Below are positions 3,963 through 43,652 of a stretch of DNA of 44,605 nucleotides, one piece after another. The translations under genes were made by a program, and so were the position numbers. The DNA is taken from NCBI GenBank assembly GCA_012031415.1, contig JAAUTN010000015.1, positions 1-44,605 on the forward strand, given 5' to 3'. The stretch comes from Leptolyngbyaceae cyanobacterium SM1_4_3. Lineage in GTDB: Bacteria > Cyanobacteriota > Cyanobacteriia > Elainellales > Elainellaceae. Within the stretch, counting starts at the first letter, position 1. Every line of letters begins with the position of its first letter. The notes under the pieces were generated by a model. The model saw only the letters and a program-made list of their open reading frames with translations, made no database searches and had not been told where the DNA came from.

Positions 3963-4019
3963 TAGCGATCGCCCCTCCATTCTTTTGTATCTATTTCAAT
4001 CGTTGAGGACGCAGAAAAC

Positions 4020-4076
4020 TTAGGAGAACAAATCGCCAAAATAAAAGAGCTTGATGTTGCGATCGCAGTTTGACTG
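4020..4076 (-). pseudogene. Remnant of a DUF6888 gene
   Basis: The minus strand reads SNCDRNIKLFYFGDLFS and a stop. It matches the middle of the DUF6888 copies (SNCYRDIKLFRFGD) up to Asp and then shares an unrelated tail (LFS, stop, and about 30 bp further) with the fragment at 7323-7469. Both remnants therefore descend from one already truncated copy. Confidence 0.65.
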
Positions 4077-4092
4077 CACATTCTATTAACTG

Positions 4093-4308
4093 CTACTGCT
4101 CGGTCTTTCTAAGCTTCTCTTCAAAGATAGACTGTACTTCACCTTCAGGATCACTCAGGTCAAAGGGATAAGGTTGATATGGAGCATTTGGATCACGGCG
4201 GCTCATCAGTACTTCTAAAGCTGCCCTGAATGCTTCTTCATCATTTCGGTGTGCTGAAATAAACTGCTTTAATTCTGCATTGGTCATTTGATACAGGTTT
4301 TGTGTCAT
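4093..4308 (-). CDS. DUF6887-family small protein
   Basis: A 71-residue acidic protein, MTQNLYQMTNAELKQFISAH and onward. The N-terminal pattern MT.AELK.F...HR.D.EAF is shared with the copies at 4642, 6176 and 7552 and fits the cyanobacterial family I know as DUF6887. The start at 4308 is preferred over 4323 because it gives an ATGA overlap with the stop of the upstream DUF6888 gene, implying translational coupling. This is the most diverged copy in the array. Function is unknown; the fixed pairing and small size suggest a two-protein complex or a toxin-antitoxin-like unit. Confidence 0.75.
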   Translation of the reverse strand: MTQNLYQMTNAELKQFISAHRNDEEAFRAALEVLMSRRDPNAPYQPYPFDLSDPEGEVQSIFEEKLRKTEQ

Positions 4309-4487
4309 AGAACAAAATCCCAATTACCGTCTTCTTTTATTATCAACGTGATCTCGTCAGCCGCCCCAGCTTGAATGTAGATTGTCTTCAATTTGTAATC
4401 GTAACGGAAGACCTGAATGGGTTGGTACAGGTTGGATAGCAACTGACAGAGAAAAATTGCTGTGTTGGATTGTTGTTGCGTTGGCAA
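4305..4487 (-). CDS. DUF6888-family small protein
   Basis: A 60-residue protein that starts at a TTG (4487) preceded by GGGAG. It reads MPTQQQSNTAIFLCQLLSNL, then IYIQAGAADEITLIIKEDG and ends NWDFVL. The family pattern is a helix with CQMLSN(L/C)Y, an FR(Y/F) strand, then (V/I)YI.AG and an end like GNW.F. The open frame extends to 4562, but the added residues have no counterpart in the other copies. The stop overlaps the DUF6887 start by 4 bp. The fold appears to be one helix followed by a small beta sheet. Function is unknown. Confidence 0.75.
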   Translation of the reverse strand: MPTQQQSNTAIFLCQLLSNLYQPIQVFRYDYKLKTIYIQAGAADEITLIIKEDGNWDFVL

Positions 4488-4583
4488 GCTACAGCTCCCA
4501 TAGTTACGCCGAACGTAGCTTACCAGAAGAGCGATCGCTCCTCCATTCTTTTGTATCTTCAATCTTTAAGCTCTTTAAGCTCG

Positions 4584-4605
4584 TTGCCAAGCTCCAGCTT
4601 GGCAA
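4584..4605. repeat. REP-like palindrome
   Basis: A hairpin with arms TTGCCAAGCT and AGCTTGGCAA separated by two bases, preceded by CTCG and followed by TGCGGTCGAGG. Its layout matches the REP-like elements near the RAYT transposase and at 14665-14743, with a variant core. It lies between two DUF6888/6887 modules. Confidence 0.6.
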
Positions 4606-4641
4606 TGCGGTCGAGGAAGCGAAAGCTCATTTGGTTAACGC

Positions 4642-4875
4642 TTACTCACCGTTTTGTTGCTTTAGTCTTTCCCTCTCCTGATCTCGCTCAAGAATAGGTC
4701 TAATCTGTTCTATTTGCTGCTGCCATTCCTCTTCACTGCTCGGTAAATGAAACAGCATTGATTCTGAACTTGAGTGAAGGCTAAACAAAGCCTCAATTGC
4801 ATCTAAATCGTCTCGATGCTCCAGCACATAAGCCCTCAGTTCAGCTTTAGTCATTCCATTAAAGTTGGGTTTCAT
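4642..4875 (-). CDS. DUF6887-family small protein
   Basis: A 77-residue protein starting MKPNFNGMTKAELRAYVLEH. It shares MKP.F..M...EL.AYVLAHRDD.EA with the 6176 and 7552 copies and ends in a highly charged helix (ILERDQERERLKQQNGE). The ATG at 4875 overlaps the stop of the upstream DUF6888 gene as ATGA; the longer frame to 4887 would cover that gene's end. It forms the second intact DUF6888-DUF6887 module. No enzymatic motif is visible, and a small helical cytosolic protein is likely. Confidence 0.78.
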   Translation of the reverse strand: MKPNFNGMTKAELRAYVLEHRDDLDAIEALFSLHSSSESMLFHLPSSEEEWQQQIEQIRPILERDQERERLKQQNGE

Positions 4876-5048
4876 AAGAACCTCCAAGTGCCGTTACGGT
4901 ACACCTCAACCTGAAGATCGTCACCTGCCAGGATGTAAACGATGCCTGTGCGATCGCCAAAACGAAAGAGCTTGATATCTCGATAACAGTTTGACAACAT
5001 CTGGCAAACCCTTACACAAGCTTGAGCTTGTTCAGCAGTCGGTAAAAT
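4872..5048 (-). CDS. DUF6888-family small protein, non-canonical start
   Basis: A 58-residue frame too short for an ordinary ORF scan: (I)LPTAEQAQACVRVCQMLSN, then LFRFGDRTGIVYILAGDD and the end NGTWRFL. It is collinear with the 4305-4487 protein. In that copy the LPT Leu is a TTG start; here it is TTA. A stop codon lies a few codons upstream, so the only likely initiator is the ATT at 5048, just after GGGAAGG. The gene either uses ATT or is poorly translated. It overlaps DUF6887 by ATGA. Confidence 0.6.
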   Translation of the reverse strand: MLPTAEQAQACVRVCQMLSNCYRDIKLFRFGDRTGIVYILAGDDLQVEVYRNGTWRFL

Positions 5049-5095
5049 AACCTTCCCTCAATTCTGACACAGCCGTTTTTGCACAAGGCTGTTCT

Positions 5096-5142
5096 CATTC
5101 CCAGGCTCCGCCTGGGAATGCTGATCATGAGGCTCTGCCTCA
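5096..5142. repeat. REP palindrome pair, left flank of RAYT
   Basis: Two palindromes lie just upstream of the transposase. The first has arms CATTCCCAGGC and GCCTGGGAATG (5096-5120). The second is TGAGGCTCTGCCTCA (5128-5142). Their mirror-image partners lie downstream at 5712-5754, so the gene is bracketed like a REP-RAYT unit. Confidence 0.8.
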
Positions 5143-5164
5143 TCCTCAAACACTAGAACTACCA

Positions 5165-5698
5165 ATGGGACGTAGCCGCTACCACTTCTTAGACAAACAA
5201 CCTCATTTCCTGACCTGTACTGTAGTCAACTGGCTTCCCTTATTTAGCAATCCAGCGTTAGTTCAAATTCTGCTCGATTCTCTCACTTTTTTGCACAATC
5301 AGCACCGTATTGCGATACACGGTTATGTGATTATGGAAAACCATCTTCATCTGATTGCATCATCCAGCAAGTTGTCAAAAGAAATAGGCACATTCAAATC
5401 CTTTACTGCTCGTTCTATGGTGGACTGGCTCAAGGTAAACAACAGGCAACGCTGGTTGTCTCAACTTGCGTTCTACAAGCAAATCCACAAAATAGGGCAG
5501 GACTACCAGCTTTGGCAGGAGGGTTCACATCCACAAGCATTGTTGACCGCAGAGATATTCCAACAGAAGTTGGAGTATGTGCATCAAAATCCTGTCCGTA
5601 GAGGCTATGTTGATGATCCAGCACATTGGCGCTACTCAAGCTACCGAGATTACCTGGATCAGCAAGGACTTTTACCGATTGTGCAGTTAGAGATCTGA
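5165..5698 (+). CDS. REP-associated tyrosine transposase (RAYT)
   Basis: A 177-residue Y1 (HUH-superfamily) transposase of the IS200-like RAYT group. The metal-binding HxH is H60-L-H62 in MENHLHLIA, and the likely catalytic tyrosine is Y138 in LEYVHQNPVRRGYV. The sequence WQEGSHPQ is typical of RAYTs. It is intact and flanked on both sides by pairs of GAGGC-core palindromes, its probable substrates. RAYTs are thought to cut single-stranded REP sequences and spread them through the genome. Related palindromes at 6122-6170, 7498-7547 and 14665-14743 look like its products. It lies opposite in strand to the surrounding DUF6888/6887 modules. Confidence 0.9.
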   Translation: MGRSRYHFLDKQPHFLTCTVVNWLPLFSNPALVQILLDSLTFLHNQHRIAIHGYVIMENHLHLIASSSKLSKEIGTFKSFTARSMVDWLKVNNRQRWLSQLAFYKQIHKIGQDYQLWQEGSHPQALLTAEIFQQKLEYVHQNPVRRGYVDDPAHWRYSSYRDYLDQQGLLPIVQLEI

Positions 5699-5711
5699 TT
5701 AAAACTTGGTG

Positions 5712-5760
5712 GAGGCAGAGCCTCTGGGTAGCATTTCTAGGCAGAGCCTAGAAACGAGGC
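5712..5760. repeat. REP palindrome pair, right flank of RAYT
   Basis: GAGGCAGAGCCTC (5712-5724) is followed by a palindrome with arms TTTCTAGGC and GCCTAGAAA (5734-5754) and then CGAGGC. It mirrors the left-flank pair at 5096-5142. Confidence 0.8.
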
Positions 5761-5763
5761 AGT

Positions 5764-6093
5764 GTCGTCTCCAGCCAAAATATAGACGGTTCCCTGCTAA
5801 AATCTTGCACCAACGGCAGGAGGTCTTGCACTAGAGCCTTGAGATCAATCTCAGGCTTAAAGCGAAAACTCGTTGAAACGAGTTGAAATGAGCTTCTGAT
5901 GGGTGTTTTAGTCAGTTTCAACTGACTTAAGCTATCAGCCCGGAATTGATTCCAGGGCGGGACATTGGGTAACAGACCAAGCCTGGTGCAAGATCCCAGA
6001 CAACATCTGGCAAACCCTTACACAAGCTTGAGCCTGTTCAGCGGTCGGTAAAATACCTTCCCTCAATTCTCTCAATGCCCCTGCTGCTTGCAA
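5764..6093 (-). pseudogene. DUF6888 gene split by a MITE-like insertion
   Basis: The right part (5996-6093, minus strand) encodes the DUF6888 start QAAGALRELREGILPTAEQ and continues to CQMLS. The left part (5764-5800) encodes a strand equivalent to TVYILAGDD. Between them sits a 193-bp element with inverted termini at 5802-5994, and about 40 bp of the gene's middle are missing. No intact protein can be made. Confidence 0.7.
5802..5994. mobile_element. MITE-like element with 11-bp terminal inverted repeats
   Basis: It is bounded by ATCTTGCACCA (5802-5812) and its exact reverse complement TGGTGCAAGAT (5984-5994). Inside are three more palindromes: AACTCGTTGAAACGAGTT (about 5871), AGTCAGTTTCAACTGACT (about 5910) and an imperfect CCCGGAATTGATTCCAGGG (about 5939). 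It has no coding frame. It sits between the two halves of a DUF6888 gene, which marks it as an insertion. No target-site duplication is visible, probably because flanking bases were lost. Confidence 0.7.
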
Positions 6094-6379
6094 CGATTAG
6101 CTTCAAGGATGAAAACAAGGTAGAGCAGAGCTTCCAAGTAGCATTTCCAGGCGGAGCCTAAGAACGAGGCTGATGCTAAATTTCTCCTTCAAGCTTGCGG
6201 CGAAACACTTCTTCCATTTGTTGCTGACCTTCTTCAGTGTAGGGAAAGTGATACCAGGTTGCTTCAGAATCAGGGCTGCGACGATCAATTAACACTTCAA
6301 ACGCCTCATTATCGTCTCGATGTGCCAGCACGTAAGCAATTAGTTCTTTTCGAGGCATTTTCTTAAAGTCCGGCTTCAT
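5997..6379. repeat. 383-bp direct repeat, copy 1
   Basis: This segment matches 7373-7755 at a constant offset of 1376 bp. I see about seven mismatches and no gaps. It contains the DUF6888 5' fragment, a REP-like element (6122-6170, GCATTTCCAGGCGGAGCCTA) and the whole DUF6887 gene. The two copies flank the HNH gene pair. Confidence 0.85.
6176..6379 (-). CDS. DUF6887-family small protein, solo copy
   Basis: A 67-residue protein MKPDFKKMPRKELIAYVLAH and onward, ending RRKLEGEI. It differs from the 7552-7755 copy at a single residue (Lys/Arg near the C-terminus). The ATG at 6379 is preferred over the extension to 6406, which runs into the HNH gene. It lacks its own DUF6888 partner: the gene immediately upstream is the HNH nuclease, 4 bp away, so it may now be expressed from that operon. 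It probably arose with the direct repeat. Function is unknown. Confidence 0.75.
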   Translation of the reverse strand: MKPDFKKMPRKELIAYVLAHRDDNEAFEVLIDRRSPDSEATWYHFPYTEEGQQQMEEVFRRKLEGEI

Positions 6380-6383
6380 TCGT

Positions 6384-6797
6384 CTACGGATAGCACTGTT
6401 GAGCAATCAGAATCTGACGTTCTAGGATACGGGATTGGGTATTAAACATTAAGAGTTTTGCTGTAGCCCGCCCTACAGAGCTAGTACCCTCAATCCGTCC
6501 ATCCTTTAGAAGAAAATGTCTTGACCAAGTTTGTTTACGAGGATGAAAAAGTTGCACAATTTTGCCAGTTATAGGGTCAAAGGTTGCCAAATCAGTTCCT
6601 TTGTGTCGGTTACAGGATAGACACGATAAAGCCAAGTTGTCTGCCAATGTTTTACCGTCATGCTTCTGGGCAATAATGTGATCTACCTCATGGGTATAAA
6701 CAGAAAAGTTTTGATGGAGCAGACAATATTCACATCTTCTTTGGGCGCGATCGCTAACTAACTGACGTAGCTCAGCAGGAATCTTGGCGATCGTCAT
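6384..6797 (-). CDS. HNH endonuclease
   Basis: A 137-residue HNH nuclease with a zinc site from C22/C25 (RCEYC) and C59/C62 (CLSC). The catalytic core is D39-H40 in EVDHIIAQ, N54 in DNLALSC and H65 in NRHKGTD. It resembles stand-alone McrA-like HNH proteins that are common in cyanobacteria. It begins directly after the stop of the 6798-7166 gene (TAA then ATG), so the two are translationally coupled. The pairing with a small antitoxin-like protein suggests a nuclease toxin module, though a selfish or DNA-repair role is also possible. The pair sits between 383-bp direct repeats. Confidence 0.88.
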   Translation of the reverse strand: MTIAKIPAELRQLVSDRAQRRCEYCLLHQNFSVYTHEVDHIIAQKHDGKTLADNLALSCLSCNRHKGTDLATFDPITGKIVQLFHPRKQTWSRHFLLKDGRIEGTSSVGRATAKLLMFNTQSRILERQILIAQQCYP

Positions 6798-7166
6798 TTA
6801 CTTCATCGCTGCGACGGCTCTCGCTTTCAACAGAATCATGAGGTGTTCAAGTTGCTCGTAAGCATCTAGTTCCCTAGTTTCGGCTTCCGTTAGAGCATTC
6901 TCTTTATTCTTACTAAGAAGAATGCTTAGCCGCTCTTGTGCTTGGGGTGAAACCTTAAAGGCAAGAATATCTTGAGGAGATGGTTGGGTTGTCAAAAAAT
7001 CTAGAACTTCTAGATAAGCTTGAGGCATTTCTCGCAAACTGACAGTTGAAGCTGGAGACAAATCAGTTGGATTTAAAAGTTGGCTCAGTAGCTCAGGCAA
7101 ACGATTCTGTAACGGCTTTAACCGCTCTGCAAGATCATCTGGAATTTGAATAGTTAGTTCAGCCAT
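6798..7166 (-). CDS. Antitoxin-like protein coupled to the HNH endonuclease
   Basis: A 122-residue protein with an N-terminal MAELTIQIPDDLAERLKPLQ segment like the start of antitoxins (compare 3289-3549). A Pro/Ser-rich linker follows, then a long charged helix (VSPQAQERLSILLSKNKE) ending LDAYEQLEHLMILLKARA. I have seen this C-terminal helix in small cyanobacterial proteins encoded next to nucleases, but I cannot name the family. It lies 0 bp upstream of the HNH gene on the same strand. An antitoxin or regulator role is inferred from context only. Confidence 0.6.
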   Translation of the reverse strand: MAELTIQIPDDLAERLKPLQNRLPELLSQLLNPTDLSPASTVSLREMPQAYLEVLDFLTTQPSPQDILAFKVSPQAQERLSILLSKNKENALTEAETRELDAYEQLEHLMILLKARAVAAMK

Positions 7167-7322
7167 TGCTGTTTCTTGCTAGTAACTCTTCAACTATAGT
7201 CTTACCCATTTTGTTGTAGGCAACTCTGCTGTCAAGAAAAGGTGAAGTCAAATAGCAGTAGTGTGGGCGATCGCCCCTCCCCTCCTTCATCCCTATTTTG
7301 AATCGTTGAGGACGTAGAAAAC

Positions 7323-7469
7323 TTAGGAGAACAAATCGCCAAAACGAAACAGCTTGATATCTCGATAACAGTCAGACAACATCTGGCAAACCCTTACACA
7401 AGCTTGAGCCTGTTCGGCGGTCGGTAAAATACCTTCCCTCAATTCTCTCAATGCCCCTGCTGCTTGCAA
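7323..7469 (-). pseudogene. Truncated DUF6888 gene
   Basis: A 48-codon frame from a TTG at 7469: MQAAGALRELREGILPTAEQ, then CVRVCQMLSDCYRDIKLFRF and GDLFS, stop. The first two-thirds of DUF6888 is intact, but the beta-strand end (VYILAGDD to the terminal NW.F) is lost and replaced by LFS. The 5' two-thirds is duplicated at 5997-6093. It lies upstream of the HNH pair and may share its transcript. Confidence 0.65.
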
Positions 7470-7755
7470 CGATTAGCTTCAAGGATGAAAACAAGGTAGA
7501 GCAGAGCTTCCAAGTAGCATTTCCAGGCGGAACCTAAGAATGAGGCTGATGCTAGATTTCTCCTTCAAGCCTGCGGCGAAACACTTCTTCCATTTGTTGC
7601 TGACCTTCTTCAGTGTAGGGAAAGTGATACCAGGTTGCTTCAGAATCAGGGCTGCGACGATCAATTAACACTTCAAACGCCTCATTATCGTCACGATGCG
7701 CCAGCACGTAAGCAATTAGTTCTTTTCGAGGCATTTTCTTAAAGTCCGGCTTCAT
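7373..7755. repeat. 383-bp direct repeat, copy 2
   Basis: Near-identical to 5997-6379, with about seven substitutions and no gaps. Its internal REP-like element is at 7498-7547. Recombination between the two copies would delete the 1376 bp that hold the HNH pair and one DUF6887 gene. Confidence 0.85.
7552..7755 (-). CDS. DUF6887-family small protein
   Basis: A 67-residue protein, MKPDFKKMPRKELIAYVLAH, then RDDNEAFEVLIDRRSPDSEA and an end in VFRRRLEGEI. It is nearly identical to the 6176-6379 copy. Its ATG lies inside the end of the upstream DUF6888 frame (17-bp overlap), so it forms a complete, coupled module. The prediction is two helices around an acidic centre (EATWYHFPYTEEGQQQ). Function is unknown. 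Confidence 0.78.
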   Translation of the reverse strand: MKPDFKKMPRKELIAYVLAHRDDNEAFEVLIDRRSPDSEATWYHFPYTEEGQQQMEEVFRRRLEGEI

Positions 7756-7930
7756 TTAGAAACCTCCAGTTTCCATCACGAGATATTAAAACCTCTATGT
7801 CGTCTCCAGCCAAAATATAAACAGTTCCCTGCTCTTCACTGTAACGGAACAGTTGGATGCTTCGATAACAGTTTGACAACATCTGGCAAACCCTTACACA
7901 AGCTTGAGCCTGTTCAGCAGTCGGTAAAAT
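7739..7930 (-). CDS. DUF6888-family small protein, non-canonical start
   Basis: A 63-residue frame: (I)LPTAEQAQACVRVCQMLSN, then LFRYSEEQGTVYILAGDD and the end DGNWRFLNEAGL. It covers the whole family length, with a short C-terminal extension reading into the DUF6887 start. As in the 4872-5048 copy, the TTG start seen at 4487 is TTA here. The only in-frame initiator before CQMLSN is ATT at 7930, preceded by GGGAAGG. The upstream 50 bp also match those of the 4872-5048 copy, so promoter and leader were duplicated with the gene. Confidence 0.6.
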   Translation of the reverse strand: MLPTAEQAQACVRVCQMLSNCYRSIQLFRYSEEQGTVYILAGDDIEVLISRDGNWRFLNEAGL

Positions 7931-7977
7931 AGCCTTCCCTCAATTCTGACACAGCCATTTTTGCACAAGGCTTACTC

Positions 7978-8012
7978 TCATCCCTCATCCTTCATCTTTC
8001 ATCCTTTCATTC
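7978..8012. repeat. Heptameric short tandem repeat (TCATCCY)
   Basis: About five imperfect copies of a seven-base unit TCATCCC/TCATCCT/TCATCTT, overlapping the last codon and stop of the caspase gene. Similar heptamers recur at 19607-19654. They fit the STRR class known from cyanobacteria. Confidence 0.7.
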
Positions 8013-10982
8013 CTCCTCTATCCCCAACTGTCTCCGAAACTCCTCATCATAAATCGCTTCCTCCCAATTTCGAGCAGCTTTAACTTGCTCAGGAGTTAGA
8101 TCGTGGGCATTACTGAGATTAGCATCGCGAAGATCAGCGTTACTGAGGTTGGCGAAGCGGAGGTAGACATAGCGGAGGTCAGCACCACTTAAGTCGGCAC
8201 CACTTAGGGTAGCACTATCGAGACGAGCAGGGTCGAAGGAGAGGAAGTCAGCATCGCTGAGGTTAGAACCGCTAAGATTGGCATTGCTAAGGTTAGCACC
8301 ATAGAATTTAGCATCGCTGAGGTTGGCATTGCTGAGGTCAGTATTGGTGAGACCAGCATTGCTGAAGTTGGCACCACTGAGATTTGCTCCATAGAGGTTG
8401 GCGTTCTCAAAGGTTGTGTCCATGAGTTTGCTGCTGCTAAGGTTGATGCTGTGGAGATTGGCACTGGTGAGGTAAGCGCCAACAAGATTGGCAGTACTAA
8501 GGTTGGCACCGCTAAGATTGGCATCACGAAGGTCAGCACCACGAAGATTGGTACGGCTGAGGTTGGTGCAGTTGCCAAATAGAAGAGTTATCAGGTAATT
8601 AGGTATCTTTAATTGCTGCCGCTCTAGAAATTGTCTCTCATGACATCCCTCAGTTAATACTTCTAAGGCTTCCCGTGTCCCTGCACCACGAGTTGCGACA
8701 ATGTTGCGGGCTTGAGCATAATTTCTTTGCCTTAGATGAGGCACGATCGCCACAAACACAACCAGCACAGGAACAGTGAGAAAACCAGCGGCTCTAAGCT
8801 GATTAACTCGCTTCTGTCTGGAGCTTCTTTGGATAAACTCTACCGCTAAGTCTGAGAGCGAGAGAGTATTAGCCTGCTGCTTGTGAAATGCTTTTGCGTC
8901 TGCTAGCGGTTTCCCTTGAAGCAGATAATCTTTGGATTTGTGGTGCGATCGCCATTCCTCTGCTCTCTCCTCAATCTTGCGTTTTTGTCGGAGTTGGTCA
9001 CGATTTTCGTTTAGCCATTTTCTTAACAGCAGCCAGTGACGAATTAGGGCTTCATGGGCGACATCGATGACGGCTTCTCGGTTGCTTCCTCCCTTCTCAC
9101 CTTGCTCATCGGTGACGATTAGCTTTTCGTCTGCCAAGCGCTGCACAACGAGATCAATCAGGGATTCTGGGAAGCAGGGGCTGATCAAATCTTGCTTCAG
9201 GACTCGTCTGCGGGTATCTTCGGTGCCTTCGCCCAGTTGCGTTAGCGAGAGGAAGATGTGTTGGGCTGCGGCTTGCTGCTCTGGGGAGAAGGAGTCGTAT
9301 ACCTGGGTAGCGCGTTTTTGCAGCGTGCCCATGACACCGCCGAGTTGGGTGTAGGTTTTGAGCTGAAGGCAGTTGTCGGTGCGCTGTTTCCAGAGTTCGG
9401 TGAGGGTATATTGCAGCAGCGGTAAACTGCCGGGGGAGCCTTCTACGTCTGTCAGCATTTGGGCGACAAGTTCGGGTTCCAGGTTGAGGCTGACCTGTTT
9501 GGCGGGTTTAAGGATGGCGTTTTGCAACTCTTCCCGGCTCATGGGCGTGACCGTCACCAGGTTTTGCTGAATCTGCTGTGCCAGTCCGCTATAGTCCTGC
9601 TCCAGACATTTGCCGAAGAAGTCTGCCCGCATTGCCAAAACAATGGAGAGTTTTGAGTTTTGGGTTTTGACTGCATCAGGTGGGTGGTTTACATCTCCAT
9701 TGCTTCTTGACGGCTGGGTTAATTCCAATGCACTCAGCAAGCAGGCAAAGAACTGTTGACGTTCGTTCAGGTTTTGGCAAAGGGTGAAGACTTCCTCAAA
9801 CTGATCGATCACAAGTAAGGTCTTGGGGTGGGGAGAGGATTGGATCAGTCGCCGCAATCCTTCTGCTCCCTGGGCTAGCTGCTGTTCGGCAAATTCTAGC
9901 TGCTTTGCCCGTTCTATAGTCGAGAGGTTGGGGTCGAGGAAGGTTTCTGCCAAATTTTGTAGCGGATGTTCACCGGGTTTAAGAATCAGGATTTGCCAGC
10001 GATCGCTCCCCGACAACCTGCGACCCTGCTTAAGCTGATGGATCAATCCGGCTCTGAGAACGGAAGATTTGCCGCTGCCCGATGCGCCCGCGATCGCCAA
10101 AAAACTTCCCTGGCGCACCTGGTCGAGTAGCTGATCGGTGAGTGCCTCTCGTCCATAGAAGTACTTCGGGTCTTCGTCGTTGCAGTCAAAATACTCCAGC
10201 CCCTTGTAGGGACAAATCGCTACTGTCGGAGCCTGGTGTGTCACTTCCCGTTGGGGTATGGCAGCACGGGTCAGACCAATCGGTTCCCCGAAGTTGGCAA
10301 AGACGGGACGCTGGGTAGCCGATTCAAACTGCTGGCTGAGAAATGCGCTGAGTGAGTGGTTAGTAGTCCAGCGATCGCCCCCTCGCGCCGGATCAAGTCC
10401 TTCCAAAATGGCTTTCGTCAACACGCTGTGAGCGTTATCGATGCCTTCATACGCGACCTCAAACTCTCTAGCAGCAGCGATAAAGCAGCGATCGCGCCCT
10501 TTACCTTTTTCTCCCGGATTAGCTTCATCGACATTGAATAGTTCACCGCTAAAGCAGCAGTCTAGCCAAACGATTTGCTGCCGAACTGGGCTTTGCTGCA
10601 ACAATTCCCGTAGCCATTTCAACCGAATGCCCCAGTTGCCAGATTTGGGGTCAGCGTCACTAGTAGCTAAGAATCCTTCGGGAATGCCCCGTTCTTTTCG
10701 CAGCCCGTGCCCCGAAAAGTAGAATAGGGCGGTATCGGGGATGCTTCTGCCGCTGGGTAAGAAGAGTTGAACAATCGCTTCCTCCAATTCCTCGAGCGTC
10801 ACTTGAGTCTTTTGCCCAACACGCAAGCTGTTGTCCTGAACCACTTCGGGCAGTCGTTTCACCTGAAAGTCGCTGTGGTGGGTGAGCAACTGGGCGATCG
10901 CCTCTGCATCATTAGCAGGTGCAGTCAGCCGATTCAACCCGTCATACGAATTAATTCCAACAACCAGGGCATCTCGGCTCAT
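8007..10982 (-). CDS. Orthocaspase - STAND NTPase - pentapeptide-repeat protein
   Basis: A 991-residue multidomain protein. Residues 1-240 are a caspase-like peptidase (C14) with the His-Cys dyad intact: H92 in YFSGHG and C143 in LDCCFSG. Residues 258-700 are an nSTAND1-type NTPase with Walker A GASGSGKSS (299-307) and Walker B LLVIDQFEE (389-397). A hydrophobic stretch follows (about 738-757, FLTVPVLVVFVAIV), probably one membrane segment. The C-terminal 160 residues before the tail are pentapeptide repeats of the A(N/D)LS form, a likely sensor or docking surface. Such proteins are thought to sense an invader or damage, oligomerise through the NTPase and activate the protease. A Trypco1-like gene is divergently transcribed 93 bp away. 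Confidence 0.92.
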   Translation of the reverse strand: MSRDALVVGINSYDGLNRLTAPANDAEAIAQLLTHHSDFQVKRLPEVVQDNSLRVGQKTQVTLEELEEAIVQLFLPSGRSIPDTALFYFSGHGLRKERGIPEGFLATSDADPKSGNWGIRLKWLRELLQQSPVRQQIVWLDCCFSGELFNVDEANPGEKGKGRDRCFIAAAREFEVAYEGIDNAHSVLTKAILEGLDPARGGDRWTTNHSLSAFLSQQFESATQRPVFANFGEPIGLTRAAIPQREVTHQAPTVAICPYKGLEYFDCNDEDPKYFYGREALTDQLLDQVRQGSFLAIAGASGSGKSSVLRAGLIHQLKQGRRLSGSDRWQILILKPGEHPLQNLAETFLDPNLSTIERAKQLEFAEQQLAQGAEGLRRLIQSSPHPKTLLVIDQFEEVFTLCQNLNERQQFFACLLSALELTQPSRSNGDVNHPPDAVKTQNSKLSIVLAMRADFFGKCLEQDYSGLAQQIQQNLVTVTPMSREELQNAILKPAKQVSLNLEPELVAQMLTDVEGSPGSLPLLQYTLTELWKQRTDNCLQLKTYTQLGGVMGTLQKRATQVYDSFSPEQQAAAQHIFLSLTQLGEGTEDTRRRVLKQDLISPCFPESLIDLVVQRLADEKLIVTDEQGEKGGSNREAVIDVAHEALIRHWLLLRKWLNENRDQLRQKRKIEERAEEWRSHHKSKDYLLQGKPLADAKAFHKQQANTLSLSDLAVEFIQRSSRQKRVNQLRAAGFLTVPVLVVFVAIVPHLRQRNYAQARNIVATRGAGTREALEVLTEGCHERQFLERQQLKIPNYLITLLFGNCTNLSRTNLRGADLRDANLSGANLSTANLVGAYLTSANLHSINLSSSKLMDTTFENANLYGANLSGANFSNAGLTNTDLSNANLSDAKFYGANLSNANLSGSNLSDADFLSFDPARLDSATLSGADLSGADLRYVYLRFANLSNADLRDANLSNAHDLTPEQVKAARNWEEAIYDEEFRRQLGIEEE

Positions 10983-11075
10983 AGGGGCAGTGGGTGAAAT
11001 ACCGTGTGATGGTTATGCCCATTACTCTAAGCTTGAATTCGGGAATCATCCAGCTAGCGTTTATCTAAAATTCAC

Positions 11076-11471
11076 ATGAGTAGACTTCAAGCGATTCAAG
11101 TGGACGAGAATACGGTGATTTATGTGGAGGCGACTGAGGAAGTCGATACACCTGTCACCGTTCCTCAAGAGAGCGAGGGAGAGGTAAGACGTGGGGGCGC
11201 GAAAGGGGCATTCACGAAACCGCAAGAACAAATGGTGAGAAGCTTTCAGGCGATCGAGGGAACGATTCGCACATACACGGCTTATACACTGAAGGCATTT
11301 AAGGATTTGGCGATCGCCGAAGTCAAGAAAGTAACCCTGGAGTTTGGCGTGAATGTCACGGGCGTGGGAGGTGTTCCCTATATCGCCTCTGGTACGGCTG
11401 GCTGCAACATGAAAATTACGGTGGAATGTGCTTTTCCAGAAACGAAGCCTGAGGCTCCGCCTGCACCATAG
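11076..11471 (+). CDS. Trypco1-like (CU044_2847-family) protein
   Basis: A 131-residue soluble protein. It begins with a strand that ends VIYVEATEE, followed by an acidic linker, then a helix (EQMVRSFQAIEGTIRTYTAY) and VKKVTLEFGVNVTGVGG. The end IASGTAGCNMKITVECAF is the usual finish of the trypsin-co-occurring domain 1 family. In comparative studies that family appears beside trypsin-like or caspase-like proteases and STAND NTPases. Here it is divergent from just such a gene, 93 bp away, so the two probably share a regulatory region and act together. The C-terminus is Pro-rich. The molecular role is unproven. Confidence 0.75.
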   Translation: MSRLQAIQVDENTVIYVEATEEVDTPVTVPQESEGEVRRGGAKGAFTKPQEQMVRSFQAIEGTIRTYTAYTLKAFKDLAIAEVKKVTLEFGVNVTGVGGVPYIASGTAGCNMKITVECAFPETKPEAPPAP

Positions 11472-11660: not shown

Positions 11661-12227
11661 CTAGAACAGTTGACTCACCAAACAGCTAAAACCAGGCAGA
11701 ATGGGGCTAGTCATTTCATCTTGGGCATAAAGCGTTGCGACGAGTTTCAGTATTGCATTCTCGCGGCGATACACTTCAACGCTTTGTTCCCTAAAATTCA
11801 CAATCCAATATTCCAGCACGCCCCGAACAGAGTACAGTTTTAGCTTTGCTTCTCGGTCTCGTCTTTCATTCGGTTTCCCTGGAGACAGCACTTCAACCAC
11901 AAGTTCAGGGGCAGCCGTTAAATGTCCAGCTTCATCCAACAACTGTTCCAATCGTTCGTGACTTGCCCAAACGACATCGGGAATAACATTATCTGATTCT
12001 GAGAAAACAATGCCCGGATTGATTGCCGCTTGTCCCAAGCCACTCTGATCAGACCACAGCTTCAGCGCAGTTCCAATATTGACGCAGACTGCTTGATGCT
12101 TCCAATCCGGCGCTCTGGTCACAAACAATTCTCCGTCAATGATTTCGTAGCGATTGGCGCGATCGCCTTCAAAGAGCGTTAGATCGGCTGTGGTCCAGCG
12201 GACTGAATTGGTGGTTGTGGACTGCAT
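11661..12227 (-). CDS. Uma2-family (DUF820) putative endonuclease
   Basis: A 188-residue protein with the PD-(D/E)XK arrangement of the Uma2 family. It has an N-terminal YEIIDGELFVT segment, then PDVVWASHERL, PELVVEVLSPG and REAKLKLYSVRGVLEYWIV. The metal ligands are likely the Asp in PDV, the Glu in VVEV and the Lys in AKLK. The ATG at 12227 is chosen because GAGGAG lies 5 bases upstream; the longer frame to 12311 covers that site. A second Uma2 gene is divergent at 12451. These proteins are very numerous in cyanobacteria, and their biological role is unsettled. Confidence 0.9.
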   Translation of the reverse strand: MQSTTTNSVRWTTADLTLFEGDRANRYEIIDGELFVTRAPDWKHQAVCVNIGTALKLWSDQSGLGQAAINPGIVFSESDNVIPDVVWASHERLEQLLDEAGHLTAAPELVVEVLSPGKPNERRDREAKLKLYSVRGVLEYWIVNFREQSVEVYRRENAILKLVATLYAQDEMTSPILPGFSCLVSQLF

Positions 12228-12450
12228 AGAACTCCTCGCCATTCTTCTTTGATCATAAGTCCCCTCGTTGCTCCTAGCCAGATAGATACTGTTCCAGTCG
12301 CCATTCGGCATAGGTAGTCGGAGCGATCGCCTGTTTTTTTATTGGCAACATGGCAGTAGGAAGCAGGGGCTTCCCTTCGGCCGTTACCAATTGCCGCTGT
12401 TACAATGGCAGTCAACAACAGTCAACCCGCAAGTGGCTTGGCAGCACACG

Positions 12451-13137
12451 ATGACGACAGAACGATTGGTCAAGCTTCCGCCTTTAGAGAGTGGCGATCG
12501 CCTCAGCCGCACTGAATTTGAGCGCCGCTACAGCGCCATGACCAACCTCAAGAAAGCGGAACTGATCGAAGGAGTCGTTTACGTGGCATCTCCCCTACGC
12601 GCTCAGGCTCATGGCAATCCCCATGCCCACGTCATTACCTGGTTGGGAGTCTATGAAGCTGCGACCTCAGGCGTAAAGTGTTACGACAACCCGACTGTGC
12701 GGTTGGATGCAGATAACGAACCCCAACCGGATGCAGTGTTAAGGCTCATGGCAGGCGGGCGATCGCAGATTAGTGAAGACGACTACATCGAAGGTTCCCC
12801 TGAACTGATTGTTGAAATTGCTGCTAGCAGTGCCTCCTATGACCTGCATGACAAACTGCGGGTCTACCGACGCAATGAGGTACAGGAGTATGTTGTTTGG
12901 CGCACTTATAATCAACAAATTGATTGGTTTTATCTAGACGCTGGGGAATATCAATCCCTTGCTGCTGACTCACTGGGTGTCTTTTGCAGTCAGCAATTTC
13001 CTGGTTTATGGCTGGCAGGTAATGCTCTTCTGTCTGGCAATTTAAGCGAGGTACTCCGCGTTCTTCAGCAGGGAATTGACAGTCCAGAACATCAGGCGTT
13101 TGTGAATGGCCATTCTTCCCTAAACCGTCAGTCTTAA
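12451..13137 (+). CDS. Uma2-family (DUF820) putative endonuclease
   Basis: A 228-residue Uma2 protein: ELIEGVVYVASPLR near the N-terminus, PQPDAVLRLMAGG, then SPELIVEIAASSASYDLHDK and YRRNEVQEYVVWRT. The PELIVEIA...DK pattern supplies the PD-(D/E)XK-like acidic and Lys residues. The frame is open upstream to 12391, but MTTERLVKLPPLESGDRLS looks like the natural beginning. It has about 35 extra residues at the C-terminus compared with the divergent paralogue at 11661-12227. The two sequences differ too much to be a recent duplication. Confidence 0.88.
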   Translation: MTTERLVKLPPLESGDRLSRTEFERRYSAMTNLKKAELIEGVVYVASPLRAQAHGNPHAHVITWLGVYEAATSGVKCYDNPTVRLDADNEPQPDAVLRLMAGGRSQISEDDYIEGSPELIVEIAASSASYDLHDKLRVYRRNEVQEYVVWRTYNQQIDWFYLDAGEYQSLAADSLGVFCSQQFPGLWLAGNALLSGNLSEVLRVLQQGIDSPEHQAFVNGHSSLNRQS

Positions 13138-13237: not shown

Positions 13238-14643
13238 ATGAACTCAGTTGATTTAGCATTTGCCCCCGCGCTCGAACAGGCTCGGCTGATTCGCAAGAAA
13301 GAAATCTCGCCGCTGGAACTGGTGCAGCTTTATCTAGAGCGAATTGAACAACTAGACTCTCGCATTGGCAGCTACTTCACGGTGATTGCAGATCTGGCGC
13401 TGAAGGATGCAAAAGCTAAAACTGAAACGCTGGCTCAGGCTGACCTAGAGGAAAAATTTCCGCCTTTTTTGGGGGTGCCCACAGCGATCAAAGATTTGAA
13501 TGCGCTGGCGGATGTGCCCTGTAGCTATGGCAACTCAATGCTCAAGCAACAGATCGTCACTCATGATGCGGCAGTTGTCAGTCGAATGAAGCAAGCTGGA
13601 TTCATTATTCTGGGTAAAACGGCAACCTCTGAGGTGGGGTCGCTTCCTTACACGGAGCCGGAAGGGTTTCCGCCAACCCGCAATCCGTGGAATCTGGACT
13701 ATACGCCGGGAGGGTCAAGTGGTGGGGCAGCAGCGGCGATCGCCAGCGGATTCTGTTCAATTGCTCAAGGCTCTGACGGTGGCGGCTCAATTCGTGGGCC
13801 CGCTTCCTGCTGCAACCTGGTGGGCATCAAACCTTCACGAGGACGAGTTCCTATGCGCCAGTGGGCGACTGTCAGAGCGGTATTGCGACTAACGGCCCGA
13901 TCGCCCGCACCGTCACCGATGCTGCTGCTTTGCTGGATGTGATGACTGGTTATGAAATCGGCGACCCGTACTGGTTGCCAACTCCGAGTACGCTATTTAT
14001 CGAAACCTCGCAGCAGGGGTTGGCTCAGCCGCTCAAGGTTGCCTTCAGTACAGGAATTCATCCCATCGGGGAAGCTGATCCAGTGGGACAACAAGCCGTC
14101 TTAGAAACGGTTAGCCTGATTCAGGAATTAGGGCACACGGTTGAGCAAGCCTGCCCGGATTGCAGCGATTTGATTGAGCCGTTTAGCGTAGTTTGGCGGG
14201 CGGGTGTCGCGGCTTCGGGCATTCCTGCTGAGGCGCTTAGTTCATTTAACCGCTGGCTGCTGTCTCACCATGACTCCAGTGGCGACTACTTACGCGCAGT
14301 CTGGGCCATGCAGGCGATCGCCCGTCGTATTGTCGCCTTCTTTGAAAACTACGACGTACTGGTGCTGCCTGTTTACCTGCATCCCCCCATCCGCATTGGC
14401 GAATTTGCAAACTTAAGTCCAGAGGAGACGCTCCGGCGGATTATTCACTGGATTGCGCCCTGTCCTCCGTTTAATGCCAGTGGACAACCTGCGATCGCCA
14501 TTCCCGCCACCTTCACCCCAGAAGGCTTACCCATCGGCATACAAATTGTCGGTCGCCCCGCCGCCGAAGCTACGATCATTGCGCTGGCAGCTCAGATTGA
14601 ATCGGTGAATCGCTGGAGTGAGAAGCGTCCGATTTTGGAATAG
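13238..14643 (+). pseudogene. Amidase-signature hydrolase, one frameshift
   Basis: Adding one base near 13850 (GTTCCTATG read as GTTCCCTATG) joins two frames into a 468-residue amidase of the GatA/AtzF family. The amidase triad is present: Lys in TAIKDLNALADV, a Ser in GGSSGGAAAAIASG and the nucleophile Ser in GSDGGGSIRGPASCC. The repaired junction reads GRVPYAPVGDCQSGIATNGP. The second half carries the usual end FNASGQPAIAIPATFTPEGL and GIQIVGRPAAEA. It would hydrolyse an amide or allophanate-like substrate; the substrate is unclear. The break is of the same homopolymer type as seven others in this window, so the gene is probably intact. Confidence 0.8.
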
Positions 14644-41279: not shown

Positions 41280-43652
41280 GTGGGACTAAAGCGACGAGCT
41301 TTCTTACAGCAAGCTGGTTTAACACTGTTGACCCTGGGGATCAGTGAGGCTGGACTGTCTCTGGGGTTGAACCGCTATCAGCAGGCATTGGCTCAGCCAA
41401 CTAGCCGAAAGTTGGCGCTACTCGTTGGCATTAACCAATATCCAGAGCAGGTTTCCGATCGCTCTACTCATGGCACAGCGCTGAATGGCTGCATCACCGA
41501 TGTTCAGCTTCAGCGAGAATTGCTGATTCACCGCTTTGGCTTTCAGCCCAGCGACGTTCTGACGCTAACCGATCAGCAAGCTACTCGTGAAGCGATCGAA
41601 GCGGCCTTTTTAACGCATCTGACTGAGCAAGCCCGTCCGGGTGATGTGGTGCTTTTCCACTTCAGCGGCTTTGGCAGCCAGGTGAAGCTGGGAGAGAATG
41701 GTGAACTGATTCAAAGCCTCGTGCCAGTGGATGGCGTTTTACCGACTGAGGAAAATCCATTCATTAACGACCTGCCTGAAGAAACGCTGGGGCTGCTGTT
41801 GCGATCGCTCTCGACAGAGCAAGTCACTGCCGTACTAGATACTAGCTATGCAGACCCTAATCGGGCAATTCAGGGCAATCTGCGGATTCGCTCCCGTCCG
41901 ACTACACCAACGGGTTGGCTCGCTGCCTCAGAACTGGAATTTCAGGAGCAGTTGCGCGATCGGGTGAAGATTTCCCAAGAACAAAGTCAAGCCCAGTGGC
42001 GCACAGGTCAGCTTCCTGGCATTGTGCTGATGGCAGCCGGACTAGACCAGGTTGCAGCAGAAGGACAGTGGAACGGGTTTAGTGCTGGGCTGTTTACCTA
42101 CGCGCTAACGCAGCATCTCTGGAATGCGATGCCTGCCAGTACACTTCAGATGAATCTGAGCCTTGCGACTGGAGCGGTTGAGCAACTGGTTGGCAAAGAG
42201 CAACAGCCACAGATTCTTGGGCAAAAGAGCCAAAATCCTTCTTTGTTGCCGTATCATCTCAAGCTGGATGCTGCAACTGCGGCTGATGGCGTAATTACGG
42301 CAGTGGAAGAAGACGCTAAGACAGTTCGCCTGTGGCTAGCTGGGGTTCCTGCTGCGGTAGTAGAAAACTATGGTCAAAACTCACTTTTTTCTCTCACTCA
42401 GCTAGCGACTCCAGCGGATGAGGGCGTGCAGTTGCTTGAGGCAGTGTTGCCCGATGCTGAAGCCACCACGCTGCCAGCAAACAAGCGGTTACTCCAGATG
42501 CGTACCCGTGAAGGTCTATCGGTTAGAGCTAAAATTTACGCTGCCTCCAGTGCAGTTCCTCTGCAAGTGGGGCAGTTAGTGCAGGAATCGGTACGGGTTT
42601 TGCCCCGCAATGTTGGCTTGACTGTGGCGCTAGATTCTAGCCTGGAGCGAATCGAACGGGTTGATGCAACCAGTGCTTTTGCGACGATTCCCAGGGTGAC
42701 GGCGATCGCCCCTGGAGAACAATCTGCGGACTATGTTTTTGGCAAAACGCAACTGGGAACCCCAACCCTGGCAGCATCCCTGATTTCGGCTTCGACGGTA
42801 GAAGGAGGAGAGCCAAGCCAGCCTATCAATGGCGATTTACCCTCTCCTAAAAGCAGCTACGGCTTATTTCATCTAGGACGGTCTGCGCTACTCAATACGC
42901 TGTCTAAAGAAGAAGAAGCCGTCAAAACTGCGGTCAACCGAATTACGCCACAGCTTCATACCCTGTTGGCGACAAAGTTGCTGCGTCTGACCAGTAACGC
43001 AGAGTCGTCTCGGCTAGGGGTGCGGGCAACGCTGGAAATGACGGCTCCGCAGGAAAGAATTGTGATGCAGCGGGAGACTTCTCGCGCTCCCTGGGATGCT
43101 CCTGCCAGCAGGTTAGCAGGGCTGTTTGTGGGTGATGGCAGGTTGCCCACTTTGCCAATCGAGAGTCGCCTTCAGTATCGACTGTGTAACTATAGCGATC
43201 GCCCCGTTTATTTCATTCTCCTCGGTCTGGACAGTAGCGGTAGTGCGATCGCCCTTTTCCCTACACCTGCGCCCGAAAGCAACAGCTTCGACTTTAAAGC
43301 CGCTCCTGCTGATAGTCTGCTCTCACCTGGAGAAATCTTGCTCGTTCCACAATCGACCCCATCAGATTGGACGCTGCAAGGTCCACCCGGCGTGGTCGAA
43401 AATTACGTCATCTTCAGCCGTGCCCCGCTTACTCAGACCTACTCTGCTCTGGAGATCTCTATGCGCTCCAAAGCAGATGCCCGTCGAGTCAGTACCCTGG
43501 CAAACCCGTTAGAAGTTGCCCAGGCAGCCCTACAAGATTTGAATCAAGCCAGCCTACTTGCTAATAGTAGAACCGACTCAGCGACCGACACCTATGCACT
43601 GGATGTCAACAACTGGGCAACCCTGAGCTTCGTCTATCAGATTAATTCTTAA
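41280..43652 (+). CDS. Pseudo-orthocaspase (C14-like, inactive dyad) with DUF4384
   Basis: A 790-residue exported protein. The N-terminus MGLKRRAFLQQAGLTLLTLG is a Tat signal with the twin-Arg motif. The caspase-like domain (about 42-290) keeps the fold (LALLVGINQYPE, TALNGCITDVQL, QPSDVLTLTDQQ). The dyad is lost: the His of SGHGS is F131 in FHFSGFGSQ, and the Cys of DTC is S189 in VLDTSYADP. The C-terminal region (about 625-720, QYRLCNYSDRPVYFILLGLD) is DUF4384. Such pseudo-orthocaspases are known in cyanobacteria and probably act as binding proteins. The start is a GTG with weak spacing. Confidence 0.88.
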   Translation: MGLKRRAFLQQAGLTLLTLGISEAGLSLGLNRYQQALAQPTSRKLALLVGINQYPEQVSDRSTHGTALNGCITDVQLQRELLIHRFGFQPSDVLTLTDQQATREAIEAAFLTHLTEQARPGDVVLFHFSGFGSQVKLGENGELIQSLVPVDGVLPTEENPFINDLPEETLGLLLRSLSTEQVTAVLDTSYADPNRAIQGNLRIRSRPTTPTGWLAASELEFQEQLRDRVKISQEQSQAQWRTGQLPGIVLMAAGLDQVAAEGQWNGFSAGLFTYALTQHLWNAMPASTLQMNLSLATGAVEQLVGKEQQPQILGQKSQNPSLLPYHLKLDAATAADGVITAVEEDAKTVRLWLAGVPAAVVENYGQNSLFSLTQLATPADEGVQLLEAVLPDAEATTLPANKRLLQMRTREGLSVRAKIYAASSAVPLQVGQLVQESVRVLPRNVGLTVALDSSLERIERVDATSAFATIPRVTAIAPGEQSADYVFGKTQLGTPTLAASLISASTVEGGEPSQPINGDLPSPKSSYGLFHLGRSALLNTLSKEEEAVKTAVNRITPQLHTLLATKLLRLTSNAESSRLGVRATLEMTAPQERIVMQRETSRAPWDAPASRLAGLFVGDGRLPTLPIESRLQYRLCNYSDRPVYFILLGLDSSGSAIALFPTPAPESNSFDFKAAPADSLLSPGEILLVPQSTPSDWTLQGPPGVVENYVIFSRAPLTQTYSALEISMRSKADARRVSTLANPLEVAQAALQDLNQASLLANSRTDSATDTYALDVNNWATLSFVYQINS

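What the first reader, a model, noticed from the sequence alone, without database searches (positions are those of the whole stretch)
8007..11471. Caspase-STAND-pentapeptide protein divergent from a Trypco1-like gene
An intact His92-Cys143 protease, a STAND NTPase with Walker A and B and a pentapeptide sensor end are combined with a protein family that co-occurs with such proteases. The 93-bp gap is the only shared control region. The set looks like an NTPase-gated cell-death or anti-phage module.
Basis: partly seen in the sequence, partly recalled or inferred. Interest (0 to 1): 0.65.

Follow-up and report, generated by a model that had tools for sequence, protein, structure and literature searches.

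The report
Paired caspase-switch and Trypco1 gene module
In this cyanobacterium a caspase-like protease wired to an ATP-driven switch sits back to back with a small helper-type gene, and the same back-to-back pair turns up again and again in other cyanobacteria and on their plasmids with the rest of the protease swapped, which suggests an untested molecular alarm-and-cut module.

Summary
11076-11471(+) is Trypco1 (PF19493, 72 bits). The gap is 93 bp.

Trypco1 genes of this subfamily have a divergent C14 caspase close upstream at 13 loci among the 60 nearest genomes, at 27 of 71 usable loci in a second cyanobacterial sample, and on all 5 plasmid records that carry it. Chance expectation is below 0.1 locus per sample. 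Start spacing is mostly 63-170 bp. The caspase's C-terminal part is swapped freely: STAND-pentapeptide, STAND-WD40, STAND-FGE, FGE, NB-ARC, VMAP-C.

Published Trypco1 pairs with trypsin; those are separate clades here (28 of 28 beside a same-strand trypsin).

Limits: the sister FACHB-471 has Trypco1 without the caspase, most Trypco1 copies of this type have none beside them, many related caspases lack Trypco1, the flanking genes are not a defence island, and no function has been measured.

Verdict: a real, recurrent two-gene module, a new variant of known NTPase/protease conflict systems. Anti-phage function is plausible but unshown.

The parts
8007..10982 (-). caspase - nSTAND1 - transmembrane helix - pentapeptide protein, 991 aa, intact ORF
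10278..10982 (-). Peptidase C14 (orthocaspase-type) domain, residues 1-235; His92 at 10707-10709, Cys143 at 10554-10556
   Evidence: Pfam PF00656; motif positions
8931..10211 (-). nSTAND1 NTPase, residues 258-684; Walker A 10065-10088, Walker-B-like 9792-9818
   Evidence: Pfam PF20703 E 7.8e-125; motifs
8742..8798 (-). predicted transmembrane helix, residues 729-747
   Evidence: hydropathy 2.36 over 19 residues; no dedicated TM predictor run
8115..8567 (-). pentapeptide repeat region, about residues 806-956
   Evidence: Pfam PF00805 E 2.7e-37; boundaries approximate, NCBIfam pentapeptide models cover 799-966
10983..11075 (.). 93-bp divergent intergenic region; about 85 bp of it conserved in FACHB-471, which lacks the caspase; similar start-to-start spacing (about 68-136 bp) in the closest homologous pairs
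   Evidence: no sigma-70-type consensus found
11076..11471 (+). Trypco1 / CU044_2847 family protein, 131 aa; acidic loop with R38-R39-G40 (11187-11195)
   Evidence: PF19493, NF041216, alignments

Best explanation
The locus is a two-gene protease module: a STAND-gated caspase and its divergently transcribed partner Trypco1. Most likely mechanism: the C-terminal repeat region (pentapeptides here; WD40 or FGE-like elsewhere) senses or docks on a trigger; the nSTAND1 ATPase then switches and oligomerises, held near the membrane by the helix; this brings caspase domains together and activates His92/Cys143 cleavage after basic residues, harming or killing the cell or switching a stress programme. 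Trypco1 is the constant partner of the protease part, a regulator, adaptor or substrate rather than a strict antitoxin. Its conserved Arg in an acidic loop is a candidate cleavage or docking site. SHOWN: domain content, catalytic motifs, recurrence of the divergent pair, spacing, swapping of C-termini, presence on plasmids, separation from trypsin-linked Trypco1 clades. INFERRED: sensing, oligomerisation, activation, cleavage of or binding to Trypco1, and the defence or cell-death outcome.
For: Recurrent divergent pairing in 12 cyanobacterial families and on 5 of 5 plasmid records, 3 typed conjugative and 1 mobilizable. 27 of the 28 caspase-adjacent loci in the second sample are divergent. Exact window architecture (caspase-nSTAND1-pentapeptide plus divergent Trypco1, start spacing 91-94 bp) also in Acaryochloris pMB04 and pREC3 and in genomes G181 and G198. 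The caspase and Trypco1 are constant while the rest is swapped: FGE (L137), VMAP-C (L159), NB-ARC (L110), nSTAND1-WD40 (L115, L129, L172), nSTAND1-FGE (L171). One caspase clade of 11 rows lies wholly at Trypco1 loci: 9 divergent plus 2 second copies at the same loci. Of 19 distinct caspases facing Trypco1, 18 match the Cys motif. Arg (Lys in one) in the Trypco1 loop in the caspase-linked sequences inspected; basic P1 specificity of orthocaspases is from the literature.
Against: Sister FACHB-471 keeps Trypco1, its upstream region and the downstream amidase but has no caspase there. In the Trypco1 tree the window copy sits in an amidase-linked, largely vertical clade. About two thirds of this Trypco1 type have no caspase beside them. 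A 26-row clade of caspase-STAND proteins has no adjacent Trypco1; Acaryochloris pREC2 keeps the caspase without Trypco1. The loop Arg is equally present in Trypco1 copies without a neighbouring caspase. No defence genes recognised in the flanks; no expression or activity data.
Confidence: 0.55

Rival explanations
1. Toxin-antitoxin-like pair: the caspase is toxic and Trypco1 is its dedicated inhibitor, made from the same control region.
For: Tight divergent pairing and plasmid carriage; small acidic partner; conserved spacing.
Against: Related caspases persist without adjacent Trypco1: pREC2, Nostoc C052, 26-row WD40 clade. Trypco1 is widely kept without an adjacent caspase. Divergent rather than the usual co-transcribed order. 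A trans-acting copy elsewhere could still protect.
Confidence: 0.15
2. Two neighbours with separate jobs: Trypco1 belongs to the chromosomal Trypco1-amidase locus and the caspase arrived or was lost independently in a hypervariable block.
For: Trypco1-amidase synteny in 22 loci; FACHB-471 lacks the caspase; a 6.4-kb block (4539-10990) with duplications and a REP-associated transposase holds the caspase.
Against: The same divergent pair with similar spacing recurs in G009 (same Trypco1 clade, amidase also downstream), in G013, on unrelated plasmids and in 12 families. This could explain the window alone but not the general pattern.
Confidence: 0.2
3. A non-defence signalling protease (stress, development, photosynthesis status) that uses the same parts.
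For: Mostly housekeeping flanks; a vertically kept WD40-type paralogue in most family genomes; no PADLOC system.
Against: Patchy presence, plasmid carriage and swapping of C-termini are typical of conflict systems.
Confidence: 0.2
4. Chance adjacency.
For: None beyond the absence of the caspase in the sister species.
Against: 13 and 27 loci against expectations of about 0.03 and 0.05; orientation bias 27 of 28.
Confidence: 0.01

Closest known systems
EACC1-caspase two-gene system (Kaur et al. 2020, PMC7159879)
   Same: Two genes; constant N-terminal caspase with many interchangeable C-terminal domains including STAND and repeats; small partner gene; proposed membrane proximity.
   Different: Partner is Trypco1, not the membrane-spanning EACC1; genes are divergent rather than in 5'-3' series; caspase scores 99.8 bits against the 140-bit cut-off of NCBIfam caspase_w_EACC1.
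Trypco1/Trypco2-trypsin pairs in VMAP ternary and related systems (Kaur 2020)
   Same: Same small Trypco1 family beside a protease fused to an NTPase or repeat domain.
   Different: Protease is caspase-type, orientation divergent, and the Trypco1 falls outside the trypsin-linked clades; no MoxR or vWA gene beside the window pair.
Cyanobacterial orthocaspases with AAA_16, WD40, FGE or pentapeptide parts (PMC8283722)
   Same: The caspase protein itself: His-Cys dyad with NTPase and repeats.
   Different: That survey lists accessory domains of single proteins; the passages read here do not describe a Trypco1 partner.
Pepco (PF24393) - caspase same-strand pairs
   Same: Small gene directly beside a C14 gene; Pepco has a borderline match to Trypco1 (24.1 bits).
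   Different: Same strand, other family, seen here in the window's own genus (L045, L113, L114).

Membership tests
Peptidase C14 / orthocaspase | C14 domain with His-Cys dyad | tested here: met
   PF00656 55 bits over cut-off 21.4; H92 in SGHG, C143 in DCCFSG
Peptidase C14 / orthocaspase | cleavage after Arg/Lys | not testable with these tools
   needs enzyme assay; basic P1 preference is literature
STAND NTPase (nSTAND1) | nSTAND1 domain with Walker A and B | tested here: met
   PF20703 E 7.8e-125; GASGSGKS and LLVIDQFEE
Trypco1 (PF19493) | domain match above curated cut-off | tested here: met
   72.1 bits against 24.6
Trypco1 (PF19493) | neighbouring trypsin-like peptidase gene (the published association) | tested here: not met
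   no trypsin among the adjacent window genes scanned; none at any fetched locus of this subfamily, against 28 of 28 in the trypsin-linked clades
VMAP ternary conflict system | MoxR ATPase, vWA protein and VMAP together | tested here: not met
   adjacent window genes are HNH, transposase, Uma2, amidase, ilvC-type reductoisomerase; not every ORF of the window was scanned. One relative (L159) does join caspase-VMAP-C, an AAA protein and Trypco1
EACC1-caspase system | caspase of the EACC1-associated type | tested here: not met
   NF047832 99.8 bits, cut-off 140
EACC1-caspase system | EACC1 partner gene | tested here: not met
   divergent neighbour matches only Trypco1
alpha/beta-hydrolase - caspase pairing | neighbouring alpha/beta-hydrolase gene | tested here: not met
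   none among adjacent genes scanned; nearest candidate, a prolyl oligopeptidase, is about 14 kb away
Known anti-phage defence system (PADLOC-DB) | complete system recognised | tested here: not met
   only single-protein matches: caspase and weak mad3/mad8
Anti-phage defence system | protects against phage | not testable with these tools
   experiment needed

The most novel reading that the evidence does not exclude
A distinct, transferable conflict system of cyanobacteria in which a Trypco1 subfamily has been re-paired from trypsin to caspase: Trypco1 is the direct regulator or substrate of a STAND-activated caspase, cleaved or docked at its conserved basic loop, and any sensor can be plugged in behind the caspase.
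Probability: 0.35. Interest if true: 0.7.

Novelty: new variant of a known kind. Interest (0 to 1): 0.47.

Why it matters
Cyanobacterial caspase homologues have been linked to programmed cell death for years without a clear trigger or partner. A small protein that repeatedly sits beside them, in fixed orientation, while the sensor part changes, is a concrete candidate regulator or substrate that can be tested biochemically. It also shows that Trypco1 is a partner of two unrelated protease folds, which points to a role tied to protease control rather than to trypsin as such.

Tried and rejected
Structure prediction of Trypco1 from the single sequence gave mean pLDDT 51, so no fold search was made. 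PDB by sequence gave nothing usable: for Trypco1 one odd match to a designed repeat protein with no stretch passing on its own, for caspase-STAND none. A conserved motif in the divergent gap across lineages was sought by alignment and not seen beyond close relatives; no sigma-70 consensus. The genome-contig scan by sequence patterns returned only FACHB-471. The idea that FACHB-471 still carries caspase remnants was not supported; it does keep a 55-bp piece of a repeat that in the window lies on the far side of the caspase (alignment score 68 against a shuffled maximum of 32), so whether the caspase was lost there or gained in the window stays open. The loop-Arg count used a regular expression that parsed only 19 of 45 caspase-linked sequences and does not separate caspase-linked from orphan Trypco1. 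Genomes outside Cyanobacteria were not surveyed.

Full report
What is there. The window comes from a cyanobacterial genome (7.79 Mb in 700 contigs; the window is contig C40). The minus-strand ORF 8007-10982 encodes 991 aa with Peptidase_C14, nSTAND1 and pentapeptide repeats. The plus-strand gene 11076-11471 is Trypco1. The gap is 93 bp.

Recurrence. In the 60 nearest genomes, 49 have a Trypco1 match and 58 a C14 match. After fetching neighbourhoods, 12 loci besides the window have a C14 gene divergent from a Trypco1 gene: G008, G009, G013, G023, G027 (same family) and G037, G040, G043, G053, G055, G057, G058 (other families). To test this on new data I built an alignment from caspase-linked Trypco1, searched about 200 genomes of the class and fetched 75 loci from genomes not used before. 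Of the 71 not at a contig end, 27 have a divergent C14 upstream, one has a C14 downstream on the same strand, none has a trypsin. Together this is 12 families. With about 5 C14 genes per 5.7-Mb genome, random placement would give about 0.03 and 0.05 such loci; shared ancestry means the events are fewer than the loci, so the p-values there should not be taken literally.

Plasmids. tblastn of the window Trypco1 against PLSDB finds five records, and every one has a caspase divergent from it: Acaryochloris pMB04, pREC4 and pREC3, Nostoc C057, Gloeothece PCC 7822. Two of the Acaryochloris proteins have the window's own architecture, as do G181 and G198. Start-to-start distance is 93 bp in all Acaryochloris pairs, 94 in the window, 91-92 in G181 and G198. 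The pREC4 caspase is cut to 207 aa.

What is constant and what varies. The caspase and Trypco1 stay; the part behind the caspase changes: FGE-sulfatase-like alone, VMAP-C, NB-ARC, nSTAND1 with WD40, FGE or pentapeptides. This resembles the EACC1-caspase organisation described by Kaur et al. 2020, but the partner and gene order differ and the caspase falls below that family's cut-off.

Two kinds of Trypco1 partner. In 91 aligned Trypco1-like sequences, all 28 trypsin-adjacent ones lie in clades of their own with the trypsin on the same strand; the window's subfamily never has a trypsin beside it. Kaur et al. named Trypco1 and Trypco2 for trypsin and reported caspases with an alpha/beta hydrolase instead. 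No paper found in the library describes a divergent Trypco1-caspase pair; supplementary files could not be read, and the library lacks most subscription papers. One paper mentions Trypco1/2 adapters and trypsin- or caspase-like effectors near the same DGR loci.

The window in its own lineage. Trypco1 here belongs to a largely vertical clade that is followed by an amidase gene in 22 loci. The sister FACHB-471 (89% identical Trypco1) has the same chromosomal order, Trypco1-amidase-reductoisomerase, without the caspase. DNA identity with it stops at window 4538 and restarts at 10991, eight bases beyond the caspase start codon. The 6.4 kb between holds the caspase, an HNH gene, a REP-associated tyrosine transposase and duplicated short genes. 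G009 has caspase, Trypco1 and amidase together at one locus, so either the pair is old here and the caspase was lost often, or it was gained more than once at the same spacing. In the caspase tree the window's nearest rows by path are four Trypco1-linked ones, though the joins there are weak, and a well-supported 26-row clade of unlinked WD40 types branches within this grade.

How it probably works. From established knowledge of STAND NTPases and caspases, the repeat end would sense or dock, the NTPase would switch and cluster, and the caspase would be activated by proximity. That Trypco1 regulates or is cut by it is inference. Its acidic loop carries a basic residue in the caspase-linked sequences inspected, which fits the basic P1 preference reported for orthocaspases, but orphan Trypco1 copies share it.

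Verdict. The defence reading remains a hypothesis: patchy presence, plasmid carriage and domain swapping speak for it; housekeeping flanks and lack of any recognised system give it no support.

Noticed in passing
window 41280-43652 (+): Second C14 protein (790 aa, with DUF4384) whose His motif reads SGFG and whose Cys motif is absent (DTSYAD): a probable pseudo-orthocaspase.
   Followed up: partly
window 13238-14643 (+): Amidase split into two overlapping frames where FACHB-471 has one intact gene; frameshift near 13849, real or an assembly error.
   Followed up: partly
window 11661-13137: Two Uma2-family genes between Trypco1 and amidase that are absent at the same place in FACHB-471.
   Followed up: no
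window 4539-7972: Variable block with a 300-nt duplication (98%, 5997-6296 and 7373-7672), 130-nt repeats and a REP-associated tyrosine transposase at 5165-5698.
   Followed up: partly
L045 2131-2673, L113 5634-6032, L114 664-1122: Pepco (PF24393) gene directly upstream of a caspase on the same strand; assigned by Pfam in L113, by similarity in the other two (all within the window's genus).
   Followed up: partly
L198 (Acaryochloris marina MBIC10699 pREC2) 4001-7180: Caspase-pentapeptide gene that keeps sequence resembling the divergent gap but has no Trypco1 beside it.
   Followed up: partly
L130-L169 (22 loci): Trypco1 followed by an amidase gene, a conserved neighbourhood without a caspase in most cases; function of the link unknown.
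   Followed up: partly
L011 (G000:C343): The window genome's WD40-type caspase-STAND paralogue appears split into two frames.
   Followed up: no
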